Origin: Ecdyonurus torrentis
Taxonomy: Eukaryota; Arthropoda; Insecta; Ephemeroptera; Heptageniidae
Length of the DNA stretch: 64,000 nucleotides
Assembly: GCA_949318235.1 (NCBI GenBank)
Contig: OX439132.1
Span: 12,619,624-12,683,623 of the forward strand
Reading direction: 5' to 3'
Below, one piece after another: positions 3,417-64,000 of the stretch. The translations under genes were made by a program, and so were the position numbers. Position 1 is the stretch's first letter. Each line of letters starts with the position of its first letter. The notes under the pieces are model-generated. The model searched no databases. It was given only the letters and a program-made list of their open reading frames with translations, and was not told where the DNA came from.

Positions 3417-4515
3417 TACATGAGATTGCGATACTATTTTTTTGACCTTTCAAAATTGGCGCTGTAAATTTTTTTTGGTTCGGTGCTTATACTACATTGT
3501 GAAAATGGTTAGCTAAATCATGCGTACTGTATACTTGCGGCATCAAAAAGTGTTCAGAATCTCAAGATAAAGCACTTTGAAATATATGTAAAGGCTAGTT
3601 CACACAATGAAATAAAACTGTGTTTGACATACATGCACGATTTCAAAATTCCAATGCCAATTTTGGATCGATATAGTAGGTTCTATAGCCCTAAGGAGCA
3701 GTGCCGTTTTGTGGATCTCAGTGTATATAATATTTATTTTAAACTGTAAGTACAGTACGTCTTTGGCTTAAAACTAATAACATAAAATCCCTGGGGACAA
3801 AATTTCACTTTTCGAACTACGAGTATCATAATATTTGAGCTGTACAGTACACTATACGCAGTGATATCTTACAGTTATTGATCAACTCATATGCAATTAA
3901 AAATAACAATAATACAAAAATTTATAAATAAGTGAATCAAATCTTTATTGCATATATGACAGGCAAAATATGCATAAGTACAAAAGAATAACATAAAAAA
4001 AATACTGAGCGCATGTAATGTTATCAATAAAAATAGCGATTACTCTTTAAGCAAAGACTATGTACTAAAAATTCTAAATAATAATTGAAATGATTGTAAG
4101 TCTACTCACTCACATCCACCAAAAATATAAAGCGTGCGATTTGAAATATCTTTGCGTAGCAAGAGACAGATAACTCAATTTGTTTCCCATGAAATGCTTT
4201 TTAAAATTTTGTTTTAGACTTATTGCATTATTGTATAGTGCAGGGCTTTTAGCCTGAGAGGAAATTTATTGTTAATTCCAGCAAAAAATCAAGCTATACT
4301 GTATAGTCCAGCCTTGACCTTCGTTTGCTGTAAGGATCTCCAAACATAGTACAGTCCATATGGTGGTGGTCTGCTGCTGTCTGGTATTTTGAAAAGTTTT
4401 AAATTATTCCTCGTTCTCTTTCTAATTTATATGTAACGTGAGTTTCATATAAAACAACAACCGCAGAAAAAAAAAAGTGGAAAAACACGATCTTCAGTTT
4501 TTCCACAAAATTTAA

Positions 4516-9661: not shown

Positions 9662-11093
9662 TTCTATATATACTTTTGATTTTTTTTTTTCCAGTTTATG
9701 CAAACAGTTGGAGAAAATTACGTTTTCAAACTGTTACATTAGGCGTTTTTCATTTTCTTCTTTTCTGTACTTTTATTTTACAATTTTGTTAATAAATATA
9801 CATTTTATACGTAATTCGTTAAATTTTTTTTTTTTGTATTATCAATTTCAATATTTAAAATATTGATTTTTTTCTCTTGTTATTTTCACGTATATTAAAC
9901 GAGGAAAGATGAGAATATATTTGGGGAGTAATAATTACAACGCACATAAGTTCATTATTATTATATTATTATTATTATTTCACAGGAAGAAAAATCCATT
10001 AAAACACTACACTATAATACACTATACTCGTCACTATACTGTTCATCAATATTTCAGAGAGCAAGGTATAAAAGTTGGAACGTAAATCCGAACTCAATTA
10101 CATTTCCAATACCAATTCATGACCATCTGTTACAGAAAGTATTTTATCAAAACTGCGCAGTTGGGAATGTGTACTGAAGTAGACAACATGTCAATGTTGT
10201 GATGAGTTTAATATAATTAAAATTATAATTGGTACATAATTAGATAATTTACATTAAAGCAGCAGTAAAATTTAAATCTCAAAGGTCTTATACAAATTAT
10301 ATAAATACTACACAAATTAGAGAAAGCTTTTGACTTAAAATTTGAAGGTAAATTCATTAACAACGTCAAGTTTACTGAATAGGATTTTCTTATTAATACT
10401 AAAATGACGCTTTAAACAGTAACCTCGATTATATAAATTTTTAGCATATGAATAGATTTCTTACTCACTTTGTAGTTAATATTGTTGAAAAAGTGGAATT
10501 TATTTTTAAAATAATTTACGTTGAACAATAATATATAATTTGTAAGGTATGTAATTGACTGTATTGTTAAACATTTGGGTTAAATTGAGAGGTTGTATGC
10601 CTGATTTTGCACAATAAAAGCCGTTACTTATTATAATTATTATAATATTTTGAGTAGGGCATTAGCATTGCAATAACTGCGTAAAAAGTTAAAGAAATCT
10701 GGTATGTAAGTGTATTTTTACGGAGCATTTTTACATTGAAACATATCTAGTTATTCTATATAGAAGACAATCAATAAACAATTTGATTTGATAAAATTTT
10801 GATGGATAGGTGTTACAATAAACGATATAATATCAACAAATCTGCTCATTCAAGATACACTACCAATAGAGAATTATATGTAGAGTCTAGACTCTAAAGT
10901 ACCATTCTAGCAATACCATGAATGTATAATCAACTATATTTTGAAACAATAGTGAGTTCATTAACTTGAAAAAACAATACCTAAATTTGGCAATCTCACA
11001 TTAAGTACTGCGTGTTATATGCTGTATGTGCTTATTATACTCTGTTATATGAAAAGCATGCTGATTGTGGGCGCTTCCTCTTTACAAATAAAC

Positions 11094-22205: not shown

Positions 22206-23410
22206 GTTTTAAAAATAGTTCACATTTTTTAGACTGTTCACAACTTTTTTTCGTTAATACGGTGATGAAACCAATAACATTGTATTTGATCTTGCTTGTT
22301 TTTATTTAAGCCAATTAATTTTTAAACGCATTGTGATTAGTTGGGTATGATTTGTGATCACCAAAATGAAGTGGGGTTAAGGAATTGTATTAAAGAATAA
22401 ACTAATGAAGAATTCAAAATATTTTTTTAAATATTTACAGATTAAAAAAGTGTTTTAAAAGTTATTCTTTCAAGTATACTTAAGAAGAAAAAAATTTATA
22501 TTTGACCTACAATGTACTGTAACAAAGATGCTATTTTTAGCCTTCAAAGACACTTTTGAATAGAACAGCTTACATAAAAATTTTATATATAAGAAAGAAC
22601 AAAAAAAGAAAAAGATGTCCACTTTCTCTAACAAAGTTTTGTTTTGACATTTTTATTGCGGAGGATGAACTGCAACAGTCTGTATTCATAGCTTTTATTT
22701 AGACTTTTCATTGTATTTTTCTCTTATTCCTGTTCATTTTATTTACTTTTATTGATATTGACTCAATCCACCTACTCAGTAATCTTTTTAATGTCTTTTT
22801 TTAGATATACTTAAATAATATTGGAAAAGAAAAGAAAGTGATTTTTATTTTGTTTGTCTCTTTTGATTTTAACCTTGCATTGTTAGTCAAATTTTTAAGA
22901 AAAGAGGACCAACATCTCTATCACGTCTAGAGTTTTCATGTAAATTATTTTCAAAATCGACAAGTTTGCCTTCTGCTGTTGTATACTTATGCAGATGAGA
23001 CGTTCGTCTCCTTTATGAAAACACCAGATGAAACGTTAAAAACAAAAAAAGACACTACGTTTACGTGCGTTTATAATTCAAATAATAATTGTTTATAATA
23101 TATAATTATACACTTATTGTCCTTAAAATGCAAGAACAGAACATATAATACACAGTAAAAATAAATAATGTAATAATTATTTTGTAACATTTTTAGCAAA
23201 AAATTACAACAACATAATTTATATTCTACTGCATAACAATTATGTTACATAGTATAAATATTATTTTATCCTGTTTTATTTTAGCAACATTTATATTATT
23301 ATATATGACAGGAAAATCAGCTTAAATAACCTATGCATATTTTGTATTATTGTACACAATTATATCATGTCAGTTTTAATTAAAAATACGTTCTTTTTAT
23401 ATGTTTACAG

Positions 23411-24299
23411 ATTCCTGGCTATCTGGTATCCACTGAAATGTCAAATCACAAAACGTCGTGCCCGACTTATGATTGTAGTCATATGGATGGTAGCATTGAC
23501 CACAACGATCCCATGGGCATTGTTTTTCGATCTTGTATCGATTTTCAATGAGAAACCGGACATCCAACTTTGTCTTGAAGTTTGGCCACCAGGATTAGAT
23601 GGAGATCTTTACTTCTTGCTTGCCAACTTACTTTTATGCTACCTGCTACCCACAGTTCTCATCTCACTGTGCTATATTCTAATCTGGATTCGTGTAGCAC
23701 ATCGAAATATACCATCTGATACAAAGGACGCACAGATTGAAAGGATGCAACAAAAATCTAAAGTCAAGGTCGTTAAAATGTTAGTGGCAGTCGTGATTTT
23801 ATTCGTATTATCATGGTTACCACTTTACCTCATATTTGCACGTATCAAACTTGGAGGTGATTTATCTGAATGGGAAGAGGAAATATTACCAATTGCAACT
23901 CCAATTGCTCAATGGCTTGGCGCATCGAATTCATGTATCAATCCGGTATTGTATGCATTCTTTAACAAAAAATACAGACGTGGTTTTATGGCAATTTTAC
24001 GAAGTCGAAAATGTTGTGGCAATCTGAGGTACGAATCTACTTTCCAAGCAAGTTTAAATTCAAACAGTACACGAAAAACGTTAATAAATTCGTCAATACG
24101 TCAAGATCCAGCTGGATTTCAATCATCATTGAAAAAAGATCCAATGTCATTTCAACAAACATCAATTCGAAAAGATCCAATGGCGTATCAACATACTTCT
24201 ATTCGAAAAGATCCTCGTTCAAGATTTCCACCTAAAAGACAAGATTCTGGTTCTTCAACATCATCTGTAGCTTACATCTTTAATAACAGTGGAGTCTAA
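23411..24299 (+). CDS. SIFaR: SIFamide-type neuropeptide receptor, last exon (TM4 to C-terminus)
   Basis: The first base completes the DRF arginine, then the frame encodes [18 protein letters not shown] (intracellular loop 2), TM4 (about [20 protein letters not shown]), loop 2 with the disulphide cysteine ([10 protein letters not shown]), TM5, the loop-3 core [16 protein letters not shown]6 with [14 protein letters not shown]7 with the NPxxY motif as NPVLY, and helix 8 with CC for possible palmitoylation. It ends at TAA 24297-24299. The two exons together give about 328 residues. SIFamide receptors mediate neuropeptide control of feeding, mating and sleep through Gq in insects. Odd features: the motif is DRF rather than DRY, and the C-tail carries four near-repeats of a 12-residue SIRKDP unit. 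An upstream in-frame ATG at 23367 is intronic and not the start. Confidence 0.93.
24090..24227 (+). repeat. 12-codon tandem repeat in the receptor C-tail
   Basis: Four consecutive units: [35 protein letters not shown] and [11 protein letters not shown]. The conserved core is S-[IL]-[RK]-[KQ]-D-P. The two central units are most alike at the DNA level (period 36 bp). Each unit offers a Ser/Thr pair just ahead of a basic residue, so the repeat multiplies potential phosphorylation sites in the cytoplasmic tail. Confidence 0.9.
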
Positions 24300-28981: not shown

Positions 28982-31279
28982 TTCTGCATACCCTCTTCAG
29001 CAGTCCATAGACTCATAACGTATTACAAGTAAGCTAGATCCTGACTACACCCTTGCAGAGTTAGTAGGATGTTTGATGAGTAGGTTGAGGATTTTTGAAC
29101 CAGGCAGATCATAGTAACAACTAAGCTTACAACAAATATATAGTTGCATACGTATTATGATTTTCATCCACTTATACCATCTGTTCAGCTGAGTGCATAC
29201 AATACATACTTGTGTAATGGTTTCTGGTCAAATATTGAGAATTTTACTACACAAAAGATAATAAAAATTAAATGTCTGCACAAAATGTTGGAAAATATTT
29301 AAAAAATAAAAATATTTTATTATTATTAGTCTTTGAGACTCATTGTAGTGTCTTATATACAAGACAGAAAAAATAATGTATAAAATAATGTTTTCGTGAT
29401 AAAGAAGGCGATAAATATTATATTATTAAATATTTAATTGTTAATAAAAAAGTAGAGATATATGTATATTTAATGTTCAATATGAAAAAATAAATATATA
29501 AATAATAGTAATTTTGACTCATATAATACTTATTTGATGTTCGTTTAAATTAAATTGAAATTTCAATTTAGTGATGTTTTAGACACTTGAAATATTATAA
29601 TAATATTAACTGTCAACTACTGTAATTGCTGTAACACCCTTCTTGAATGTAACAAAATAAATGTTGAATAAATATAAAATGGAAATGTTTTTCTCTTTTA
29701 AAAAAAGATGTTTTTAACACTTAACTTTTATAATATAGCGATATGAAGAAATTATTATTATTATTTTACGCTTTATATGAAAGCATTAAGATTTTTTTTT
29801 TATGTAGGATAATTGTAAAGATGTTGAAATATATTATTATTAAATATAATAGGCATATATTATTAAAATTTTAAGTTCACACTCTGTATGTATTGGCACA
29901 ATGAACAATTTTTTTTTATCAAATAGACGGTTCATATCACTTTTGTAACAGTTTTTATTTATTTTTCTTATTTTTGAAATACAAAAAAAAGTAGAAGAAG
30001 AAGCTTTCAATCAACAATATAATTACTTCACTACGAGTTCTCCTTTTCACTTACAATTAATGTAGTTATTATCATCATAATAAAGGAATGCTTCACTGCT
30101 CTTTAACTTATTATTAGATTAAATAAATTAGAGTTTTAATTAAAGTCTGCTATTTTTTTTACAAGAAACAGATAAAGACATGCAAAACGTATAATGTCAA
30201 AACCATAAAATTGAAAACTAAATTCAAGAAATAAAAAAAAATTTTAATTATAAATTTTGTTACAAACATCTTGAAATAAAAACGTAAATCAGTTTTAAAT
30301 TACAAAAATTTTAATACTCATATAAATAATTATATTTATATTATAAAAAAAAAAGAAACAAAAAACACTATTTTATATTCACAGCACAAAATATAAAATA
30401 TGAAAAAATATATAAAATAATAAATTTTTAACTTTATATTGTGACATTTGAATTTATCAGTGTCACTTATATTTCTTAGTGATCTTTGTTGTTGTTGTTG
30501 TTGTAAAGAAAGAAGTAAAACAGATGAAGTATGTCAGAATAGAATATGAAAACAATGATGACAATCCTTGCACCTGGTACACTACAAATAATCTAACTTT
30601 GAGGTTTAATATTTGAGGAAAGAAAAAGTATTGACAATGAAGAACGAGAATTGCCGACGTGTTTGTAAATTGTAAAAAAGTTAAATAGTTTGATTGAATT
30701 TTAAAATTTAAAAAAAAGCTTATTTCCAATATTTTTCAATCAAAAGCAGCAATACTTGTAAGACTTGAAATAATATTTGTTTAAACTAGTTTTGATTAAC
30801 GCCAACAACAAACTAAACACACCAAATTATGAGATTAATATCTCACAGATTAAAACTAATATTATTATATTTAAAAATTTAATTACACAGTAAAAGTAAT
30901 TTCGAAATAATTAAAATGTAACCTTCTCTCAAACAATTTTTAACGATCTAAATTTTCAAATCCAAATTCAAATTAGTTCATTACTCAGCAACAGAGCAAG
31001 TCCAAATAGAGTCAAATTAATACAAAAAGACAAAACAAACATAAAAGACACATTGTCCATGCCATTATAATCATACCTCCCTGCACACGCATGCAAAAGC
31101 TGCGTCTGGAAAGAGACCCGACCACGCATGATTCTGGAAACTTTCTTTACTTTAACTGATTATTTAATAGTAATGAGAGATTCACCGTACAATACGCAAG
31201 GAAAATATTTATGAAATATGAGAAAACATGCTTAAATCATTTTTTAAATGCCAAAGTTACAAGATCGGTAAAAATATAT

Positions 31280-31280
<1 letters not shown>

Positions 31281-31366
<86 letters not shown>
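31281..31366. repeat. (TA)n microsatellite, about 86 bp
   Basis: Uninterrupted TA tract. Confidence 0.98.
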
Positions 31367-31848
31367 TAATCAATGACAGTAAGATATTTTGATCTAATAT
31401 AATGATTATTCAATATGTAATATTACTAATAAAGACAGAGTAGAAAAAAATGCACAACTATAAAATCATGTATAACATGAAACAAAATTATAATAATTAT
31501 ATTCCTATGTGAAATATAAATCACATCAAATTAAAATAAAATAACTTACCACAATTTTTTATTTTAACTTGAAAAATTGTTTTGACTTAAAGAGTAAAGT
31601 TCATTAAAATTTTCATTTCACAGTTAGAAAAAAAAAAGGATCAAAGAATGTCTTTTTAATTTTTATTATACTGTTAGTCTATTCTTTAAGCCAATGTAGA
31701 ACATTTGAATTAGCCAACATTTGTAGCCAACATTTGAATTACTATGATTTCAGTGAAACTATACGATCATAGAACAGAATTACGGTTTTCAGACTATATC
31801 TAATAGTTTAAAAGTTTTACTCTAAAATCTCCATAATATATCCTTGAA

Positions 31849-35161: not shown

Positions 35162-35387
35162 TACAGAGTACGATACACAATGCACCTGTCACAATGTAAG
35201 CCAGTGTTCTTACTTGAGGGAAGTTGTCACGTTGCACTCTAGTAAACTTATCACGACACCGAGCAATGTTTCAAGTCAATTTATCACAGTTTCTCCAATA
35301 TTCCTTCTACACACATTAGTTTGTTCTATAAACTACACACAACTCTTGAGCCAGCTACAAAAAATTTTTTTTTTCTTTGTTAAAATC

Positions 35388-35632
35388 ATCTGATCATGAC
35401 GTCGTTACCTGTTTACTACGTTTATATGGTTGATCATTGTTATTTCTTCGTTTAAAAATTTGGACCTGATAAAAATGAACAAAACTTCACACAAAAAAGT
35501 TCCATGCTCAACATACGACTCACTTTTATCGGCTCAAAAAACAAGATCAACCAATGAATGTGTCTTATTATGTTGGTCAGCCAATCACTGTTAATGAGAT
35601 TCACTGTACTTTACAGAACAAACTATTGTACT
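35388..35632 (-). repeat. 240-bp interspersed repeat family B, copy 1
   Basis: Read on the minus strand this segment matches the 55-kb copies from TGTTCTGTAAAG through the shared block CAGTGATTGGCTGACCAACA and ATTCATTGGTTGATCTTGTT to GTAAACAGGTAACGA and a final GTCAT-ATCAG. It differs from them by scattered substitutions and short indels. There is no coding capacity. The class (MITE, SINE or fragment of a larger element) is not decidable from three copies. Confidence 0.8.
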
Positions 35633-36499: not shown

Positions 36500-36508
36500 C
36501 TTATTGCA
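36500..36508. repeat. Target-site duplication, left (9 bp)
   Basis: CTTATTGCA lies directly outside the left end of the foldback element. The identical 9 bases follow its right end at 42045-42053. Confidence 0.92.
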
Positions 36509-36563
36509 ATGAACGTCAAGTTAGCCCCCCCACCCCCGAACTTTTAATTGAAAATTTGTGTGT

Positions 36564-37075
36564 CGTTTGTGCTACGTTTGTGCTGGTTTGTGCCGTAAAA
36601 AGTTTCGTTTGTGCTACTAATTAGCGGGAGTTAATTAGAATCTTAATTTGGGGGGCTAACTTGACGCCAACCCCCCCTCCATTAAAATTTCAAACTTTTT
36701 TCACGTCAATCGTTTGTGCTACGTTTGTGCTGGTTTGTGCCGCAAAAATTTTCGTTTGTGCTACTTTAATTACAGAGTTAATTAAAATTTAATGAGGGGG
36801 GGCTAACATGACGCCAACCCCCCCTCTAACAAAATTTGAAATTTTTTTCACGCCAATCGTTTGTGCTACGTTTGTGCTGGTTTGTGCCGAAGAGTTTGAC
36901 GTTTGTGCTGGTTTCGTTCCTGAGATAATTAGCAATTAATTAGGGGGGCCAACTTGACGCCAGCCCCCCCACTCACAAAAATGAAAAAATTTTGGTGGGA
37001 ATCGTTTGTGCTACGTTTGTGCTGGTTTGTGCCGTAAAGATTGACGTTTGTGCTGGAATATTAATTAAGATATTC
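36564..37075. repeat. Four tandem subrepeats of about 146 bp, left arm
   Basis: Units start at 36564, 36711, 36858 and 37003 with CGTTTGTGCTACG (periods 147, 147, 145 bp). The first three also contain a GTTTGTGCT-rich core, a short AT-rich piece and a G-run/C-run hairpin such as GGGGGGCTAACTTGACGCCA followed by a C-run; the fourth is truncated after the core. The sequence from the element's tip to 36563 is a partial extra unit. Confidence 0.9.
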
Positions 37076-38310
37076 ACTAATTAACTTTAGAGCCAATCAC
37101 AATTGCGCATTTCAAGTAGCGCGAAAGATTTGAATTGAATATTTAAATGCAAATACGTATAACTAGAGTGCGCTTTCTCTTTTCCTTTTTGCACCCAGGT
37201 GAATAAAGGAAACGATATATATACGTAAAGGGAAGGTGGGGTAATTTAGTCCATGGGGCATAATGGGACACTAATTGAATGAAAGTTTGAATTTTGAAAA
37301 TTTCCATGCTTAATATAAGATATATATAAAATAAATATTATTGTTGTTACTTTTTTTATAATATTTCATTTCCATGTTTTTATTTTAATTTAAGTTTTAA
37401 GCGATGAAGCATGCTCAATATGAGCTTTAAAAAAATGTTTGAGCTTCATGCTTAAATATAATTTCCTCGTACAGAAACATTAAACTGAGTAAATTTTACT
37501 GAATGCAAATGTCATTTTTATTTATTGTATAACTGATGCTAAAATATTTAAACAATATTTAATAGGTAAAATATTCACACAAAAAAAAAAAAAAAAAAAA
37601 AACAAACAAACAAAAAAAAAACTTGTAACTTGTAACACACGTTATTATTAATTTATTATCAAGCAATATAACCTGGTATGTTGCATTAAAAAATTGTGCA
37701 GAAAAAGAGCTATTACAATATTTATTTATTTTTCGTCGTATATATACATAGCATGTATATAATATGCTATGTTGTATGCTATGTATGCTATGTTGATTTT
37801 TAGAGCCAGGTATTCCTTCTTTGACATTAACAGAGTTGTAAATATATACAATACATATTCGTCTTTATTCAATAATACTTCAACAACAAAAAAAAAAAAA
37901 AAAAAAAAAAAGTATTTTCCACTCATACACCTAAGAAGCCATAATATACGATTTCAATTAAAAATAAAAATCTATATTATTGGTGATAATATAAAATTAA
38001 TTATTTATTTATTAAACACCAAGGTGTACTTATACATATTTATATACATATTTATATATTTAATTTAAGATAAATGATTTAATATGATAATATAAAATGG
38101 AAAAGATTAAGAATAAATTGCACATTGTAACAAAGAGTATAGGCAATTCCTACGTTTTCAAAAATATTTAAGGAAATTGTAACGAATGTATTAACTTAAG
38201 GTAACACCACTATTAACACAATATAATTATATTTTACTAAATAATAAAATTACTGGCGTAGAACACATTGAAAAAAAGGAGTCTAATATCCTAACATACC
38301 TAAATATCAA

Positions 38311-38504
38311 CGTTGATTTAGCCGGAGTCATTGATTTTCAATTTATATTCCATTCACGAAATGGCAGATGCGGTTTTATGACGTCACAGCTCGCTTGTTC
38401 TCGCACGCGTAGACCAGTGAGCTGTGACGTCATAAAACCGCATATCTGCCATTTCGTGAATGAAAAATAAATCAGAAATCAATGACTCCGACCAAATCAA
38501 CGTT
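38311..38504. mobile_element. Palindromic MITE nested in the left arm (194 bp)
   Basis: The ends CGTTGATTTAGCCGGAGTCA and (other strand) CGTTGATTTGGTCGGAGTCA continue as a nearly complete hairpin across the element. It contains two perfect TGACGTCA octamers in inverted positions and a loop around a CGCACGCG core. The mirror copy in the right arm is 40053-40244, so it was inside the ancestral arm before or when the arms were duplicated. Confidence 0.75.
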
Positions 38505-39008
38505 AATGCAATTTTAGAATATTAGACAGATTTCATATCAAACTTCAAAAAAAAAAAAAAAACTATATTTTATACTATTTACCAATTAACGAAATTAAAA
38601 AACAACTCTTTTCAAAGAACAGCGAGGAAAAAAATAATGGCGCCAGGGGGAGGGGGGGTAATATATTTTGTGTTCTAAAAGATAACATTGCCCTGATTCA
38701 ATTTAAACTCAAATTTTTAATCTTTGAGTTCATAAAGTATTTGTAATTAATTTTTGAGAATCAATAAACGATGACACGGGCGGTAACTTACACGCATTTA
38801 AGCATCGAAAAAAGTATCCACCCGTGACGTCATTTTGCGACTTAAAAAAAATAATATACAAATTACTAAGCTAAAAAATTAAAAATTTGCATATTTCGAT
38901 TCAGGACAATGTCCTGTTTTAGAATGAATTATAATTACCCCATTGAAATTTTTAGTCTTTCTCATTTAAATGTGTTGCATATACAAAATGTTGATATTTT
39001 TTAGAAAA

Positions 39009-39330
39009 AGTCTGCGGCCCGCAAATGATTTCTAAGGTCCGATTTGGCCCGGCATACAAAATGAGTTTGACACCCCTAGACGATCTCATTGAAAAAAAAA
39101 AGTGGTTTTGACCTATAAGCAAAGTTAAATTCAGTGCCATACCTACATTTTAATTTGTTGCATAATGAATTCATTATGCAACAAATTAAAATGTAGGTAT
39201 GGCACTGAATTTAACTTTGCTTATAGGTCAAAACCACTTTTTTTTTTCAATGAGATCGTCTAGGGGTGTCAAACTCATTTTGTATGCCGGGCCAAATCGG
39301 ACCTTAGAAATCATTTGCGGGCCGCAGACT
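39009..39330. repeat. Perfect palindrome, 2 x 161 bp, at the element centre
   Basis: The sequence is its own exact reverse complement about GAATTC at 39167-39172, including a matching 10-base A/T run. Pairing ends abruptly just outside these limits. Its axis (39169.5) is about 107 bp left of the axis of the outer arms (near 39277), so it is a separate inversion event. Each half ends inside a hAT-like terminus. Confidence 0.95.
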
Positions 39331-39608
39331 TTCAGTGAGGGGTGGACAGGGCCCCGCCGGAGTAAATTTTTTTCAAAAAGGGGGCGTGGCTATTAATTTT
39401 TATGCAAATAATATAAGTTTAATTGAAAATATTAACATTGTTAATTTTAAAATCATGAAAAAGTGGGACCAAATCTGTAATTATACATTTTTTTTAATTA
39501 TTATGTTTTATTTAATTTAATTTTTTTTTTAATCGGAGGTTCCGCGGGCCGCACAAAATGACCTCGCGGGCCGCATGCTACCCGCGGGCCGCGTGTTTGA
39601 CACCCCTG
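39261..39608. mobile_element. hAT-like MITE in the spacer, about 348 bp
   Basis: The left end TAGGGGTGTCAAAC and the right end (other strand) CAGGGGTGTCAAAC are inverted. Both are followed by CGGGCC(GCA)-rich subterminal sequence (GCGGGCCGCA several times near 39310-39595). These termini are typical of hAT-superfamily MITEs. No 8-bp duplication is seen at the present borders, as expected if later rearrangement copied the left end into the central palindrome (partial inverted copy at 39009-39078). Confidence 0.6.
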
Positions 39609-39860
39609 CGATAGAACAAGATTATTATTATAATAATATTTATTTTTAAAATCGTAAAATATTAATAATTTAAAGTGGCTTTTTAGTACCAGTCCCTATT
39701 GAAACGAAAAAGTGTCTCATTATACACTGGTAAATATATACTACTGTTTTTGTTAATATAGTTATGTTATGAGTATATGAGTCTCACCGAAAAATTATCT
39801 GGCTATAGAAAAAAAAAGTATATACTTACATTATAAATTTGTGCACGGTCAAAAGCATAC

Positions 39861-39945
39861 CTCTTTTTCAGCACAATTTTTCAATGCAACATAAATAACA
39901 TAATCTATATCAGGTTAAATTGCTTGATAATAATAACGTGTGTTA
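39861..39945 (+). repeat. Partial direct copy of right-arm sequence in the spacer
   Basis: Resembles 40843-40919 in the same orientation: both run from CTTTTT-C-GCACAATTTTT through AATGCAACATA and GCTTGATAATAA to AACGTGTGTTA, with indels. It is a diverged third copy of arm sequence lying inside the spacer. Confidence 0.65.
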
Positions 39946-40052
39946 GAAGGCACAATTTTTGTTTACTTTTTTTTTTTTTTACCTTGGCTGCAATTTTAAG
40001 TCGCGGAACACTTTGAACAAAAAACCTGTCTAATATTCAAAAATTGCATCAG

Positions 40053-40244
40053 CGTTGATTTGGTCGGAGTCATTGATTTCTGATTTATTTTTCATTCACG
40101 AAATGGCAGATATGCAGTATTATGACGTCACAGCTCACTGGTCTACGCGTGCGAGAACAAGCGAGCTGTGACGTCATAAAACCGCATCTGCCATTTCGTG
40201 AATGGAATATAAATTGAAAATCAATGACTCCGGCTAAATCAACG
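40053..40244. mobile_element. Palindromic MITE nested in the right arm
   Basis: Mirror copy of 38311-38504 as expected for arms of one inverted repeat. Both TGACGTCA octamers are kept. One shoulder differs from the left-arm copy (ATGCAGTATT where the left arm implies ATGCGGTTTT), one of the few arm-to-arm differences. Confidence 0.75.
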
Positions 40245-41494
40245 TTGATATTTAGGTATGTTAGGATATTAAGACTCCTTTTTTTCAATGTGTTCTACGC
40301 CAGTAATTTTATTATTTAGTAAAATATAATTATATTGTGTTAATAGTGGTGTTACCTTAAGTTAATACATTCGTTACAATTTCCTTAAATATTTTTGAAA
40401 ACGTAGGAATTGCCTATACTCTTTGTTACAATGTGCAATTTATTCTTAATCTTTTCCATTTTATATTATCATATTAAATCATTTATCTTAAATTAAATAA
40501 ATAAATATGTATATAAATATGTATAAGTACACCTTGGTGTTTAATAAATAAATAATTAATTTTATATTATCACCAATAATATAGATTTTTATTTTTAATT
40601 GAAATCGTATATTATGGCTTCTTAGGTGTATGAGTGGAAAATACTTTTTTTTTTTTTTTTTTTTTTTGTTGAAGTATTATTGAATAAAGACGAATATGTA
40701 TTGTATATATTTACAACTCTGTTAATGTCAAAGAAGGAATACCTGGCTCTAAAAATCAACATAGCATACATAGCATACAACATAGCATATTATATACATG
40801 CTATGTATATATACGACGAAAAATAAATAAATATTGTAATAGCTCTTTTTCTGCACAATTTTTTAATGCAACATACCAGGTTATATTGCTTGATAATAAA
40901 TTAATAATAACGTGTGTTACAAGTTACAAGTTTTTTTTTTGTTTGTTTGTTTTTTTTTTTTTTTTTTTTTTTGTGTGAATATTTTACCTATTAAATATTG
41001 TTTAAATATTTTAGCATCAGTTATACAATAAATAAAAATGACATTTGCATTCAGTAAAATTTACTCAGTTTAATGTTTCTGTACGAGGAAATTATATTTA
41101 AGCATGAAGCTCAAACAATTTTTTAAAGCTCATATTGAGCATGCTTCATCGCTTAAAACTTAAATTAAAATAAAAACATGGAAATGAAATATTATAAAAA
41201 AAGTAACAACAATAATATTTATTTTATATATATCTTATATTAAGCATGGAAATTTTCAAAATTCAAACTTTCATTCAATTAGTGTCCCATTATGCCCCAT
41301 GGACTAAATTACCCCACCTTCCCTTTACGTATATATATCGTTTCCTTTATTCACCTGGGTGCAAAAAGGAAAAGAGAAAGCGCACTCTAGTTATACGTAT
41401 TTGCATTTAAATATTCAATTCAAATCTTTCGCGCTACTTGAAATGCGCAATTGTGATTGGCTCTAAAGTTAATTAGTGAATATCTTAATTAATA

Positions 41495-41990
41495 TTCCAG
41501 CACAAACGTCAATCTTTACGGCATAAACCAGCACAAACGTAGCACAAACGATTCCCACCAAAATTTTTTCATTTTTGTGAGTGGGGGGGCTGGCGTCAAG
41601 TTGGCCCCCCTAATTAATTGCTAATTATCTCAGGAACGAAACCAGCACAAACGTCAAACTCTTCGGCACAAACCAGCACAAACGTAGCACAAACGATTGG
41701 CGTGAAAAAAATTTCAAATTTTGTTAGAGGGGGGGTTGGCGTCAAGTTAGCCCCCCCTCATTAAATTTTAATTAACTCTGTAATTAAAGTAGCACAAACG
41801 AAAATTTTTGCGGCACAAACCAGCACAAACGTAGCACAAACGATTGACGTGAAAAAAGTTTGAAATTTTAATGGAGGGGGGGTTGGCGTCAAGTTAGCCC
41901 CCCAAATTAAGATTCTAATTAACTCCCGCTAATTAGTAGCACAAACGAAACTTTTTACGGCACAAACCAGCACAAACGTAGCACAAACGA
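41495..41990. repeat. Four tandem subrepeats of about 146 bp, right arm
   Basis: Inverted counterpart of 36564-37075, read as AGCACAAACG-rich units separated by C-run/G-run hairpins. A single-base difference from the left arm is visible near 41523 (GGCATAAACC for GGCACAAACC). Confidence 0.9.
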
Positions 41991-42044
41991 CACACAAATT
42001 TTCAATTAAAAGTTCGGGGGTGGGGGGGCTAACTTGACGTTCAT

Positions 42045-42053
42045 CTTATTGCA
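42045..42053. repeat. Target-site duplication, right (9 bp)
   Basis: CTTATTGCA, identical to 36500-36508. Flanking bases on both sides differ, so the duplication is exactly 9 bp. Confidence 0.92.
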
Positions 42054-50200: not shown

Positions 50201-51740
50201 ACCAAAAATACTGATTTAAGTAATGCACTGAAGCAATAATGTATAAAATTTAATATAAAATCAACAAATAACTTCACAATGTGAATGTAAGAATATTATA
50301 TATTTTCTTGGAAGAATTGCAATATTTTTCTCCACCCATCTTTTAAATATTCAAGCAAGTATGTGTAAAGTATACGTAACAAAACATAAAATTGCTATAT
50401 TTTTATATACATACTATATAGGAAATGTATTTTAAAATACATTTATACAGTTTTATGATAATAGTAAAAGTATAATATTATGTTATATATATAAAATATA
50501 GTATCGTCTCGTGCCAGAAATGAATTTAGATCTTTTGTTTCAACAAGTCTCTCAGTATATTTAATAAATCTTTCATACATATAAATGTCATTGTTTGTAA
50601 CTTTAAGAGCACACAATATACATACATAAAGTAAAAGTTTCATATTATACTATTATTATTTTTCTTCTTCTATACTCTGAAAGGTGATATAGTGAGAGAA
50701 TGATGATATAAAAGAAGTCTTCTTTTTTTATGCAATAAAGCATCTTATCTAATTTACAAATGCCAAAATGTGTGAAAAATGCGTCACGTTTTTAAACATT
50801 TCCTGGTTTTTAAAACTGTTTTTAGTATAAATATTTTCTTCTTTATAATAAAACAATGGCTTTAAAAAAGTATTTAATGTAAATTTTTAAAATAAATCAT
50901 TTTCTTATAGAAAAAAATAAGGAAGACTTCACTCTCTTTTATGTGTGTACTTTTTAAGTATGAATTGTTACTCTGCTTTTTTTTCCGTTTGTGTCAACTT
51001 AGGGTTTTCTTAAATAGATCGTTTTAGGAAAGTCGTTTTATAATATATAGCTTCTTACGTAAGTAGTTTGTTGTTTATAACATAACTATAAAAATAAACG
51101 AATAAATAATAGAAAAAAAAAGCAATGATGAAGTAATTATTAACTCATTAACCCCTTGTGGTGGTCAAGCTTGCCTCATTATTTGAAATTTGTTAAATAT
51201 ATGCCCAGAAGGACATTTTTATTATTATATAATTTTATATCTATATAGGCACAATATAGTAACAATGCGTTCTAGCAAGATATTGCAATACAAAATGAAT
51301 AATTGATGTGTGTTTTTTTGACATACACTACCAATTATCTTGTAAATAAATAATGAAAGTATACGTATGATTTTTTTTTTATTGGAATGCTATAATTACT
51401 ACGTTGAAATTCGCGCGAGTACTCATATGGTACGTACTAAATAATTATATATAACTACTCTGAATGTCAAGAATTTGTTTTGTGGTTTTTTCACGGACTT
51501 GAGCGTCATCAAAATTTCCTTGTCTGATATAAAAGGATATGGTTTAGTATTTTGTTTATTTGAATCATTTATCAATTTTAATGACTCCCCATTCATGTCT
51601 GTTAAAGGATATTGGTTTGAAAGAGGCGTCACACAGGGAAATTTAATTATAAATTATTTTTTTTGCAACATTTATAATAACTCATAAGACGTTTCTTAAT
51701 GATAATAATTTTATTGTGATCTAAAAATTAGGTCATATTA

Positions 51741-51860
<120 letters not shown>

Positions 51861-53392: not shown

Positions 53393-54773
53393 ATCAGTTT
53401 TAAAATTGAAAGTAATTAAAAATTAATTTTAATAAAAAAAGAAGTTATTACTATTAACATATTTATTGGCTCATGATCTCATGATGGTATAAAGTTTTTA
53501 AGATTTTTTTTAATACTGAGTATTTATTAACGTGTGATTCATTAAAGTTATTGTAAAATTTATGCACGGGACATTTATATAAATAATACAACAGAGTATA
53601 AGGGAGAAAATCCACAACACTCAATGTTCTCATGGGAAAAAATACTCATCTCCCTCTCTGTTTTACAACCCTACACGTGAAAATGATGCCATATTTAATT
53701 AAATTGTACACCAGAAAATATTAATAAAATACAGTAATATTTTTCTCATCGTTTTTTTTTTTTTTTTTTTAATTAAAAGGTCAACCCTCAGATTAAGTGC
53801 TTTAAAACTTTACATTTTTGCTTCTTGCTTTACTGCTTCACCTTTGAGTGTCTTTTTTAACACCCCTTGGGGTAAAAATACAATTAAAAAAATTTAAAAA
53901 AAAATTAATTAATATTTTTTTTAATTCTATGATTTTATCTGAAAATATAACTTTCTTGAAATAAAATTTCAATGCTATAGATTTTGCAAACGGCCTATTT
54001 ACTTATAAAAATTTTGCAAGACAATATAGAAGAAATTTGATAAAAAACAAACACATAATTACTTACAAGAATGTCAATAAAAAAATGACCATGAGCACCT
54101 TCCACTCATTAATAATTAATATGTTATTATTTTATTAATCCATATATGATAGATACATACAGTATGATTATACAGTATAAGCTCTGATTCACGTTTTTAT
54201 ATTTCAACATAAACTGCAGCCAAGTTCCAAACGTCCTTCACTTATAAACAACAAATAAATAAGAGTATAATGCACTTTTTATGTTACAATCGAAAGTAAA
54301 GCACTATTATATTTTGTTATTATACATTCTAGAATCATGTTAATAAATTATACTTTTGTGGGGCATTTTTTGAATCATGATTACTGAACTTTTTATGTCG
54401 CTTCCGTCAGATTTATTAATAAACTATAATTTTATATAAAAATGTTTTTGTTAAAATATATTTAGAAATAATTTATTATTCATTACGATTACATTGTTGT
54501 TGTTTTTATTGCAAGATATTGATTTTATCTATTGGAGAATATACATGAAGAATATAAAGTGAAATGTTAAACTATGGGAAGCATCTTTGAATTTTAAAAC
54601 TTTTTTTTAAAGGCTGTGCATAGAGTAAAACAAAACACAGAATGCATTTAAAAAAATGACATTTACAGTAAAAACAATAACTATTGAATAGTTAAAGGAC
54701 TACTGGCTTTAAAAAAATAAATCAAAAACGTAAAATTCATAAGATGGGACCTTCATTAACAAACATATACAAG

Positions 54774-54981
54774 CTTGTTCTGTAAAGTAAAGTGAATCTC
54801 AACAACAGTGATTGGCTGACCAACAAAATACGACACATTCATTGGTTGATCTTGTTTTTTGAGCTAACAAAATTGACAAAAATTGAGTCACATGAAGAGC
54901 ATGGAACTTTTTTGTGTGGAGTTTCTTTCATTCTTATCAAGTTCAAAGTTCTAAACAAAGAAATAACAATGATCGACATTA
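54774..54981 (+). repeat. Interspersed repeat family B, copy 2 (first of tandem pair)
   Basis: Near-identical to the segment that follows at a period of 209 bp, and homologous to the minus-strand copy at 35388-35632. It ends at AACAATGATCGACAT without the terminal GTAAACAGGTAACGA block, so it is the incomplete member of the tandem pair. Confidence 0.85.
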
Positions 54982-55233
54982 GCTTGTTCTGTAAAGTAAA
55001 GTGAATCTCAACAACAGTGATTGGCTGACCAACAAAATACGACACATTCATTGGTTGATCTTGTTTTTTGAGTTAACAAAATTGACAAAAATTGAGTCAC
55101 ATGAAGAGCATGGAACTTTTTTGTGTGGAGTTTCTTTCATTCCTATCAAGTTCAAAGTTCTAAACGAAGAAATAACAATGATCGACCATATGTATATAAA
55201 CGTAGTAAACAGGTAACGAAGTCATAATCAGCT
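54982..55233 (+). repeat. Interspersed repeat family B, copy 3 (second of tandem pair)
   Basis: Full-length relative of 35388-35632, including the ATATAAACGTAGTAAACAGG block and the final GTCATAATCAG. The few differences from copy 2 indicate a recent local duplication of 209 bp. The short frames it encodes are identical in both copies only because the DNA is duplicated. Confidence 0.85.
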
Positions 55234-55307
55234 GTTATAACAAAGGAACATATCGACACAAAAGTTGCGCCGGAAGTCTGACTTTGCAGAACGAGCTTAA
55301 GTCCCTT

Positions 55308-57593: not shown

Positions 57594-57852
<259 letters not shown>

Positions 57853-58919
57853 TTGACTAAATAGGAAAACTATACAAAACGTTGAAATTTTCTACTCATG
57901 CAACACGAGTCTATCTTAATTAGTACAAGATTCTCAATGTGCAATTTTCAACACTTAATTTGTAGGAACACTAGTATGTTGTTACAGTTCTAGTTATATT
58001 GTAATATAAATAATAGTGAGAAGCAATTTTAATTAGTATTTTGCCTAGGAAAATCTTAACAAAAGAATTGTGTGATGATGACTTTTCTATGATTTCTAAT
58101 TTCTTATCTAGTGTTGATTAGACTAACTCAAATTTACTGATGCATATTTACTGATGTATAATATATTTTAACTTGTTATATTATAGTTAATAACATTTGA
58201 TCTACAATAACTATTTTTAACAAATCAAACAATAATTTTATATGTATTTCATAAAATGATGATAACTCACAGTTTTTCCTGATACAAATTTCACTTTTAC
58301 ATGAAATCACTTCAATTGCTAATTTAATTTTTACGACTTTTGCTTTGATTTCTATCCAATAAGGAAAATTATTACACATGCCAACCCAGTTTTAATGTGA
58401 TCGCAAAAAATTTCTTGGAGACCTCAACGCTTGCATATACAAATGAGGAGAAATTTTACTCCTCATTGTTTTAAAAGTTGACATGTGGTAAACTTGTAAA
58501 TTAGCAATCAAACTGTATATAATTTCAATAAAATTATAATATATTAGTTGTATACTATTATAACTAGGTTTTCATTTAATATAAATAAAAAACATGCTAA
58601 ATAAACTAGTGAATAAATAATATAATAATAATAATTATCTAACAAGCCAACAAACAATAGATATTTATAATACATTTAATATAAAAAAAAGAGTAAAAAA
58701 TTGATTTAATTTTAAATTAAATGTTAATTACTTATAGATAATTACAGCGTAAATTAATTAAGCCTAGATGAAAGTTCATGGAATATAGACCACAAGAGTT
58801 GATAATTCACCTTGTTATCATACTTGTTAAATGATATATATGCATTTTTATCACAAAAACTGATGAATGAATATCTCAAGTTTCACTTCTATGTCACTAC
58901 CAAGGTAAGCCAGACGTAC

Positions 58920-59137: not shown

Positions 59138-63432
<4,295 letters not shown>

Positions 63433-64000
63433 ATCGTGCCGCTAGTTCTCGCCTTACTGGCTAGCTCTGCCCTTGCACAGCAACAATTACGTCGTGTTCG
63501 AGTGAGGACACGTCCCCTTGCTGCCAGTGTAGAGGAGCCCCAAGCTGAAGCCCGCTCTGTAGAAACTGCCCCTCAGGTTCAATATTACGCAGCCCAAACA
63601 GAAGAAGAGGCTGAACCTGAAACTGTGGTTCTGGTCCAGCCACCTCGCCAACGTGCCAACCAATATTTTGGTAACCAATTGGCACGTCAGGATGATGAGT
63701 ACCGTGCACCATTGAGACCACAAGGTCGTGCTACTTCTGCTCAACAAACTCAACCACGCACCAAGGAACACACACGTGCCCCACCTGTTCAAACCCTCCG
63801 TAATTACAATACTATTAACGATGATGGCTCTTTCACTTTCGGTTATGAAGCTGCTGATGGAAGTTTCAAAGAGGAAACTCGTGGAGTTGATTGCGTAGTC
63901 CGTGGTAAATATGGATATATTGACCCTGATGGTAACAAACGTGAGTTCACTTATGTATCTGGCAATCCTTGTGACCCTAACAACCCTGACCCTGAAGAGG
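63433..64000 (+). CDS. RR-1-type cuticular protein, exon 2 (partial, runs off the window)
   Basis: Continues in phase 0 from exon 1: IVPLVLALLASSALA completes a signal peptide, with likely cleavage before QQQLRR. A low-complexity region rich in Gln, Arg, Glu, Ala and Pro follows (mature residues about 1-115). Then comes a chitin-binding (chitin_bind_4, Rebers-Riddiford) domain: TINDDGSFTFGYEAADGSFK, EETRGVDCVV, RGKYGYIDPDGNKREFTYVS. The aromatic residues in F-T-F-G-Y and Y-G-Y and the PDG turn fit the RR-1 group. Instead of the usual ADENGF ending it reads SGNPCDPNNPDPEE, with a cysteine pair (GVDC, NPC). The product is secreted and expected to bind chitin in cuticle. The 3' part lies beyond the window; codon use is visibly GC-richer than the surroundings. 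Confidence 0.92.
   Translation, partial: MVPLVLALLASSALAQQQLRRVRVRTRPLAASVEEPQAEARSVETAPQVQYYAAQTEEEAEPETVVLVQPPRQRANQYFGNQLARQDDEYRAPLRPQGRATSAQQTQPRTKEHTRAPPVQTLRNYNTINDDGSFTFGYEAADGSFKEETRGVDCVVRGKYGYIDPDGNKREFTYVSGNPCDPNNPDPEE

What the first reader, a model, noticed from the sequence alone, without database searches (positions are those of the whole stretch)
36500..42053. 5.5-kb foldback element with 2-kb inverted arms and a perfect 9-bp target-site duplication
The arms pair at a constant coordinate sum (78553-78556) over about 2.02 kb, and CTTATTGCA is duplicated exactly at both outer ends. This makes it a true insertion rather than a chance inversion. It has the hallmarks of Drosophila Foldback elements (9-bp duplication, arms of tandem subrepeats) but the sequence matches nothing I recognise, and no transposase is present. 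Near-identical arms suggest recent activity or ongoing arm-to-arm conversion.
Basis: partly seen in the sequence, partly recalled or inferred. Interest (0 to 1): 0.85.

Follow-up and report, generated by a model that had tools for sequence, protein, structure and literature searches.

The report
Non-coding foldback transposon in an insect
This looks like a 5.5-kb piece of mobile DNA in an insect genome, built as a huge hairpin with no recognisable gene of its own, that probably moves with an enzyme made by another element; it appears to be a new family of a type already known from flies, mosquitoes and nematodes.

Summary
In detail: element 36509-42044 (5,536 bp), exact CTTATTGCA on both sides, arms 99.2% identical over 2,027 columns. 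Each arm has a terminal motif and 3.4 subrepeats of 147 bp. The box GTTTGTGC occurs 31 times in these arrays and once elsewhere in the window; shuffles average 1.34. A 33-bp block with three boxes is identical in all four left-arm units although the rest has drifted. The terminal core recurs inverted inside the arrays. I read these as transposase contact sites. No transposase domain was found in the 31 ORFs (of 51) that overlap the left arm and loop. Anatomy and duplication length fit a non-autonomous Mutator-type foldback transposon, as Tetris, Tm1 and Muta1 derivatives. Membership in Mutator is inferred only: the own-genome search failed in 14 of 14 tries, so other copies, an autonomous relative and an empty site are unexamined. 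Six of ten arm substitutions lie in the innermost 98 bp, pointing to homogenisation or late re-copying of the outer arms. The loop holds nested palindromes, one perfect and possibly an assembly fault. New family, known kind.

The parts
36500..36508 (.). target-site duplication, left copy, CTTATTGCA
42045..42053 (.). target-site duplication, right copy, CTTATTGCA
   Evidence: the only other occurrence in the window, either strand, is at 4219
36509..42044 (.). whole foldback element, 5536 bp, 30.7% GC against 25.5% for the rest of the window
36509..38533 (+). left arm
   Evidence: blastn self-comparison
40022..42044 (-). right arm
   Evidence: blastn self-comparison
36509..36530 (+). left terminus ATGAACGTCAAGTTAGCCCCCC
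42023..42044 (-). right terminus, exact inverted match
36563..37057 (+). subrepeat array of the left arm: 147, 147, 145 bp units and a partial fourth; 16 GTTTGTGC boxes; 33-bp invariant block at the head of every unit
41496..41990 (-). subrepeat array of the right arm, mirror image; 15 GTTTGTGC boxes plus one changed by the 37029/41524 substitution
36650..36677 (.). inverted pair of terminus-like sequences inside unit 1 (GGGGGGCTAACTTGACGCCAACCCCCCC); similar places in units 2 and 3, not in the partial unit 4
   Evidence: CGTCAAGTT sites
38306..38507 (.). 200-bp palindrome near the inner end of the left arm (about 86% self-complementary)
   Evidence: I12
40048..40249 (.). the same palindrome in the right arm
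   Evidence: I13
38436..38533 (.). innermost 98 bp of the arm, holding 6 of 10 arm-to-arm substitutions
38655..38941 (.). decayed palindrome in the loop, 66% self-complementary
   Evidence: halves aligned
39007..39332 (.). perfect palindrome, 2 x 163 bp, no spacer; possible recent duplication or assembly fault
   Evidence: I5
39261..39608 (.). hAT-like non-autonomous insert: inverted ends sharing AGGGGTGTCAAAC; no matching 8-bp flanks
   Evidence: superfamily name recalled, not searched
39857..39980 (.). diverged (71%) piece of arm sequence inside the loop, homologous to 40839-40955
   Evidence: E 5.8e-17

Best explanation
A non-autonomous foldback-type cut-and-paste DNA transposon, most likely mobilised in trans by a Mutator-like (MULE) transposase encoded elsewhere in the genome. 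Proposed steps: (1) the transposase binds the GTTTGTGC boxes arrayed four to a unit in each arm, and the terminal motif; (2) it pairs the two ends, cuts out the element and inserts it at a staggered cut, leaving 9-bp duplications; (3) the arms, able to pair with each other, were kept alike by conversion or were re-copied from one another, stopping near the centre of the palindrome at the arm's inner end; (4) the loop, under no constraint, collected nested hairpin elements and a hAT-like insert. Shown: borders, duplication, arms, arrays, box distribution, block conservation, clustering of arm differences, no recognisable transposase domain. Inferred: binding, the enzyme's superfamily, trans-mobilisation and conversion.
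For: Exact 9-bp duplication at borders set independently by the arms. Arms of 2,025 and 2,023 bp at 99.2%. GTTTGTGC: 31 of the 32 matches in the window lie in the two arrays, expected 1.34, 0 of 100 shuffles reach it. 33-bp block identical in 4 of 4 left-arm units while 66 of 114 remaining columns agree among the three full units; longest invariant run matched by 0 of 20,000 column permutations. Terminal core CGTCAAGTT: 7 of 8 window matches are at the two ends (2) and in the arrays (5); shuffles average 0.25. No transposase domain in 31 of 31 stop-to-stop ORFs of 40 aa or more overlapping the left arm and loop. 6 of 10 arm substitutions fall in 98 bp (51 of 200,000 random placings do as much). 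Same build in print: Tetris, 8-10 bp duplications, subrepeats of about 220 bp, no transposase found (PMC4079207); Aedes MULEs, 8-9 bp duplications, 10 of 12 long-arm families with subterminal tandem repeats (PMC5225508 passages); Tm1, 9-bp duplications and a Phantom-type MULE transposase (PMC3169594).
Against: Only one copy seen: no other copy in the window; exact patterns gave 0 hits in viral contigs and two bacterial contigs in genome contigs (read as chance), but these collections are a poor place to look for an insect element. The terminus starts ATG, whereas most arthropod MULEs are reported to have conserved G/C bases in the first three positions (PMC13359780 passage). Foldback shape also occurs with a P-type transposase (Galileo). 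The invariant block might reflect local conversion between units rather than selection. ORFs under 40 aa and spliced remnants were not scanned. Assembly errors cannot be excluded.
Confidence: 0.78

Rival explanations
1. A foldback element mobilised by a transposase of another superfamily with duplications near 9 bp (Merlin, P/Galileo type, or one not yet described).
For: Foldback arms arose in several superfamilies (PMC3169594 Discussion). Merlin makes 8- or 9-bp duplications (PMC8101967 passages). The ATG terminus departs from the tendency reported for arthropod MULEs.
Against: Merlin termini are given as 5'-GG and arms as 24-462 bp: not met here. Galileo copies are flanked by 7-bp sequences (PMC3573991 passages): not met here.
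Confidence: 0.14
2. An assembly artefact: one arm is a reverse-complement copy created by a chimeric read or scaffolding.
For: Very high arm identity; a perfect zero-spacer palindrome in the loop; no reads available.
Against: Arms differ by 10 substitutions and several indels, are separated by 1,488 bp of loop, and end exactly at an exact 9-bp duplication next to different flanks.
Confidence: 0.04
3. A segmental inverted duplication by host repair or replication (fold-back template switching), with no transposition.
For: The arms' inner ends are themselves palindromic, which could provoke template switching (general knowledge); a diverged piece of arm recurs in the loop.
Against: Does not predict a 9-bp duplication at the outer ends, nor terminal motifs repeated inside arrays.
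Confidence: 0.04

Closest known systems
Tetris (Drosophila virilis; PMC4079207: abstract, section 10, part 1 of section 16 read)
   Same: Non-coding foldback element; arms up to 1,735 bp with internal tandem repeats (about 220 bp) that share 37 bp with the outer arm; 8-10 bp duplications; assigned to Mutator by duplication length; no transposase found.
   Different: Repeat unit 147 bp; GTTTGTGC boxes; array begins 54 bp from the end, not behind an outer domain of up to 866 bp; nested palindromes in arm and loop. No Tetris sequence was compared here.
Muta1 and derivative elements (Aedes aegypti; PMC5225508: abstract and passages)
   Same: 8- or 9-bp duplications; short terminal motif followed by subterminal tandem repeats; non-autonomous derivatives with varied internal sequence; called a type 2 foldback element by its authors.
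   Different: Muta1 arms are 145 bp with nine 12-bp repeats; here about 2 kb with 147-bp higher-order units, each holding four 8-bp boxes.
Tm1 (Meloidogyne; PMC3169594: abstract, section 9, part 1 of section 11 read)
   Same: Composite arms with variable numbers of short repeats, 9-bp duplications, mostly non-autonomous.
   Different: Repeats of about 14 bp (core CGATTCAGTATCGC in M. incognita); asymmetric 7-bp ends outside the inverted repeat; arm identity 93% on average.
Galileo (Drosophila; PMC3573991: passages)
   Same: Long arms, in some groups with tandem repeats of about 210 bp suggested to hold secondary transposase sites; short internal inverted repeats in some groups.
   Different: P superfamily; 7-bp flanking sequences.
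Drosophila FB (recalled; no FB sequence compared)
   Same: Foldback shape, tandem subrepeats, 9-bp duplications.
   Different: Sequence relation untested; unit length differs from what is recalled for FB.

Membership tests
Foldback-type DNA transposon (structural class) | Long inverted arms containing tandem subrepeats, around a variable middle | tested here: met
   (variability of the middle not testable on one copy)
Foldback-type DNA transposon (structural class) | Target-site duplication at the borders | tested here: met
   CTTATTGCA
Foldback-type DNA transposon (structural class) | Several dispersed copies | not testable with these tools
   The genome search unanswered in 14 of 14 tries; window has one copy
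Mutator/MULE superfamily | 8-11 bp target-site duplication (8-10 in PMC5225508; 9-11 in PMC3310237) | tested here: met
   9 bp, one copy
Mutator/MULE superfamily | MULE-type DDE transposase in the element or in an autonomous relative with the same ends | tested here: inconclusive
   none in 31 of 31 ORFs over left arm and loop; relatives could not be searched
Mutator/MULE superfamily | Conserved G/C in the first three bases of the terminus (most arthropod MULEs, PMC13359780; a tendency, not a definition) | tested here: not met
   terminus ATG; paper passage
Merlin superfamily | Terminal 5'-GG | tested here: not met
   terminus ATG; criterion from PMC8101967 passages
P superfamily, Galileo | 7-bp flanking duplication | tested here: not met
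   9 bp here; criterion from PMC3573991 passages
Drosophila FB family | Sequence similarity to FB arms or NOF transposase | not tested
   no FB sequence was compared

The most novel reading that the evidence does not exclude
The element belongs to a transposon lineage with no described transposase, whose ends work as a graded array: each full 147-bp unit carries a pair of inverted pseudo-termini and four GTTTGTGC boxes, so that inner units can serve as alternative ends and the element can shed or regrow its arms by transposing from them, with arm-to-arm conversion stopping at the hairpin at the arm's inner edge.
Probability: 0.1. Interest if true: 0.65.

Novelty: new member of a known kind. 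Interest (0 to 1): 0.4.

Why it matters
Foldback elements have been tied to chromosome inversions and to the birth of satellite DNA (Tetris paper, abstract and Discussion part 1). This copy shows a sharp step between nearly identical and diverged arm sequence beside a hairpin, and a clear candidate binding module, so both the homogenisation of arms and the multiple-binding-site idea could be tested on it. Its arms of about 2 kb exceed the longest in a survey of arthropod MULEs that encode transposase (text: 1,193 bp; one table row: 1,527 bp; PMC13359780 passages), a survey that did not cover elements without transposase.

Tried and rejected
Other copies: none in the window. The 30 best unfiltered matches shown lie at A/T runs, and the filtered self-comparison shows no match between element and rest at E 1e-8 or better; weaker pieces were not listed. 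Exact pattern scans: a 23-mer and the terminal 19-mer in viral contigs, 0 hits each. A 22-base pattern in genome-contig hit two contigs, both of Pacificibacter marinus; I read these as chance and did not look into loci L001 and L002.

Own genome: the genome search with the same request failed as busy (14 of 14). So copy number, an autonomous relative and an empty site remain unexamined, and it is not known whether a genome is held. No empty-site pattern was searched anywhere.

Transposase remnants: of 51 stop-to-stop ORFs of 40 aa or more overlapping the element, the 31 that overlap 36509-40021 were scanned against Pfam (one of them without its first codon). The other 20 lie wholly in or beyond the right arm, the left arm's mirror, and were not scanned. 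No match reached its curated cut-off; the strongest, SegE_GIY-YIG E 2.8e-4, has 21.5 of 25 bits and its ORF holds a lysine run, so rejected. Six other weak matches (E 0.007 to 0.16) are to unrelated families.

First count of arm differences (7 of 11 in the last 98 bp) included one position outside the arm; corrected to 6 of 10. In some searches the masked copy of the window was 9 bases short behind the element, so matches there to the right of it read 9 too low; coordinates given here are corrected or taken from the unmasked comparison.

Literature by motif: three 10-base strings in full text, 296 papers, 20 listed, whose titles look unrelated. RNA families and tRNAs: none at the default threshold. 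Host: the SIFamide-receptor tree joins the window with three unnamed proteins (100/100) and then Ischnura (93/96, below the tree tool's own mark of 95); a palaeopteran insect is a guess.
Full report
Observation. A self-comparison of the element finds arms at 36509-38533 and 40022-42044, 99.2% identical over 2,027 columns with 10 mismatches. CTTATTGCA stands directly outside both. Random pairs of 9-mers in this AT-rich window agree at a rate of 0.00015. The longest inverted pair outside the element is 274 columns at 83%. The element is 5,536 bp, 30.7% GC in a 25.5% GC background.

Anatomy of the arms. From outside in: terminus ATGAACGTCAAGTTAGCCCCCC (identical at both ends); a subrepeat array at 36563-37057 with steps of 147, 147 and 145 bp; about 1.25 kb without repeats of this kind; and a palindrome of about 200 bp at 38306-38507. 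The box GTTTGTGC occurs 32 times in the window, 31 of them in the two arrays, in one orientation per arm; 100 shuffles give 1.34 on average and at most 6. By position there are 4 boxes x 4 units x 2 arms = 32; the one missing was changed by the arm substitution at 37029/41524. A 33-bp block with three boxes is identical in 4 of 4 left-arm units, while 66 of 114 other columns agree among the three full units; 0 of 20,000 column permutations give so long an invariant run. The terminal core CGTCAAGTT occurs 8 times in the window: once at each end, five times within the arrays, and once elsewhere at 10364. Inside a unit it forms one half of a G-run/C-run inverted pair.

Arm-to-arm differences. The outer 1,927 bp differ by 4 substitutions (0.2%) and a few indels, the last 98 bp by 6 substitutions (6.1%). 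A 98-bp span with 6 of 10 occurs in 51 of 200,000 random placings. The first of the inner differences lies about 30 bp beyond the centre of the arm's inner palindrome. Meanwhile neighbouring units within the left arm match a reference unit at 82% and 61% without gaps (D2). So the arms were made alike as wholes, after the units had drifted: either conversion of long tracts or a late re-copying of one arm. A single copy cannot separate these.

Loop. It contains a decayed palindrome (38655-38941, 66%), a perfect 2 x 163-bp palindrome without spacer (39007-39332), a piece with inverted ends sharing AGGGGTGTCAAAC (39261-39608) that resembles a non-autonomous hAT element (name recalled, not searched; its 8-bp flanks do not match), and a 71% copy of arm sequence (39857-39980). 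The perfect palindrome may be a recent duplication or an assembly fault; this cannot be decided here. Of 51 ORFs of 40 aa or more, the 31 overlapping the left arm and loop were scanned and none reached a Pfam cut-off.

Mechanism. Cut-and-paste movement in trans is the natural reading of duplication, termini and missing gene. The boxes are the best candidates for transposase contacts because their block alone resists drift; arm repeats with this proposed role are described for Galileo (passages) and suggested for Tetris (Discussion part 1). Local conversion between units remains an alternative cause of the invariance. Nothing here shows binding or movement.

Known kinds. Tetris is the closest in build; Muta1 derivatives and Tm1 link this build to Mutator-type transposases. 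Duplication length supports Mutator; Merlin and Galileo criteria fail. The ATG terminus departs from a tendency of arthropod MULEs. I therefore file it as a foldback-type transposon that probably works like a non-autonomous MULE, with membership in Mutator unproven. Eight paper searches were made, with these listings: 20 of 70 papers, 3 of 3 (36), 5 of 5 (37), 20 of 296 (38), 12 of 12 (46), 15 of 83 (47), 7 of 7 (58), 1 of 1 (61). None of the listed titles and abstract openings describes this element, but the host is unidentified and repeat databases were not searched, so this says little about whether the family has been recorded.

Host. The window carries a SIFamide-receptor exon (7tm_1, 1.1e-29) and a cuticle protein (Chitin_bind_4, 3.3e-11) (receptor name), so it is an insect. 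The three best protein matches are unnamed sequences (sources jgi and lgn) at 88-94% identity.

Limits. One copy, no reads, no relatives. The verdict rests on anatomy.

Noticed in passing
39007-39332: Perfect 326-bp palindrome with no spacer; 72 bp of each 163-bp half is the end of a hAT-like insert. Either very recent or an assembly fault.
   Followed up: partly
35375-35629 and 54772-55245: Inverted pair of dispersed repeats, about 83-85%, one member holding a 209-bp tandem duplication at 98%; one lies within 1 kb of the element.
   Followed up: no
31274-31409 and 51702-51834: AT-rich inverted pair, 90% identical (second place shifted by 9 to true coordinates).
   Followed up: no
38379, 38425, 38825, 40123, 40169: TGACGTCA (a CRE-like palindrome, name recalled) occurs 8 times in the window, 5 of them inside the element.
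   Followed up: no
23253-24299: Last coding part of a SIFamide receptor gene; nearest named relative in the tree is Ischnura, 93/96.
   Followed up: partly
63409-63999: Cuticle protein gene with Chitin_bind_4, running off the window.
   Followed up: no
57594-57854: TTTA microsatellite of about 65 copies; several long GA/TC runs elsewhere in the window.
   Followed up: no
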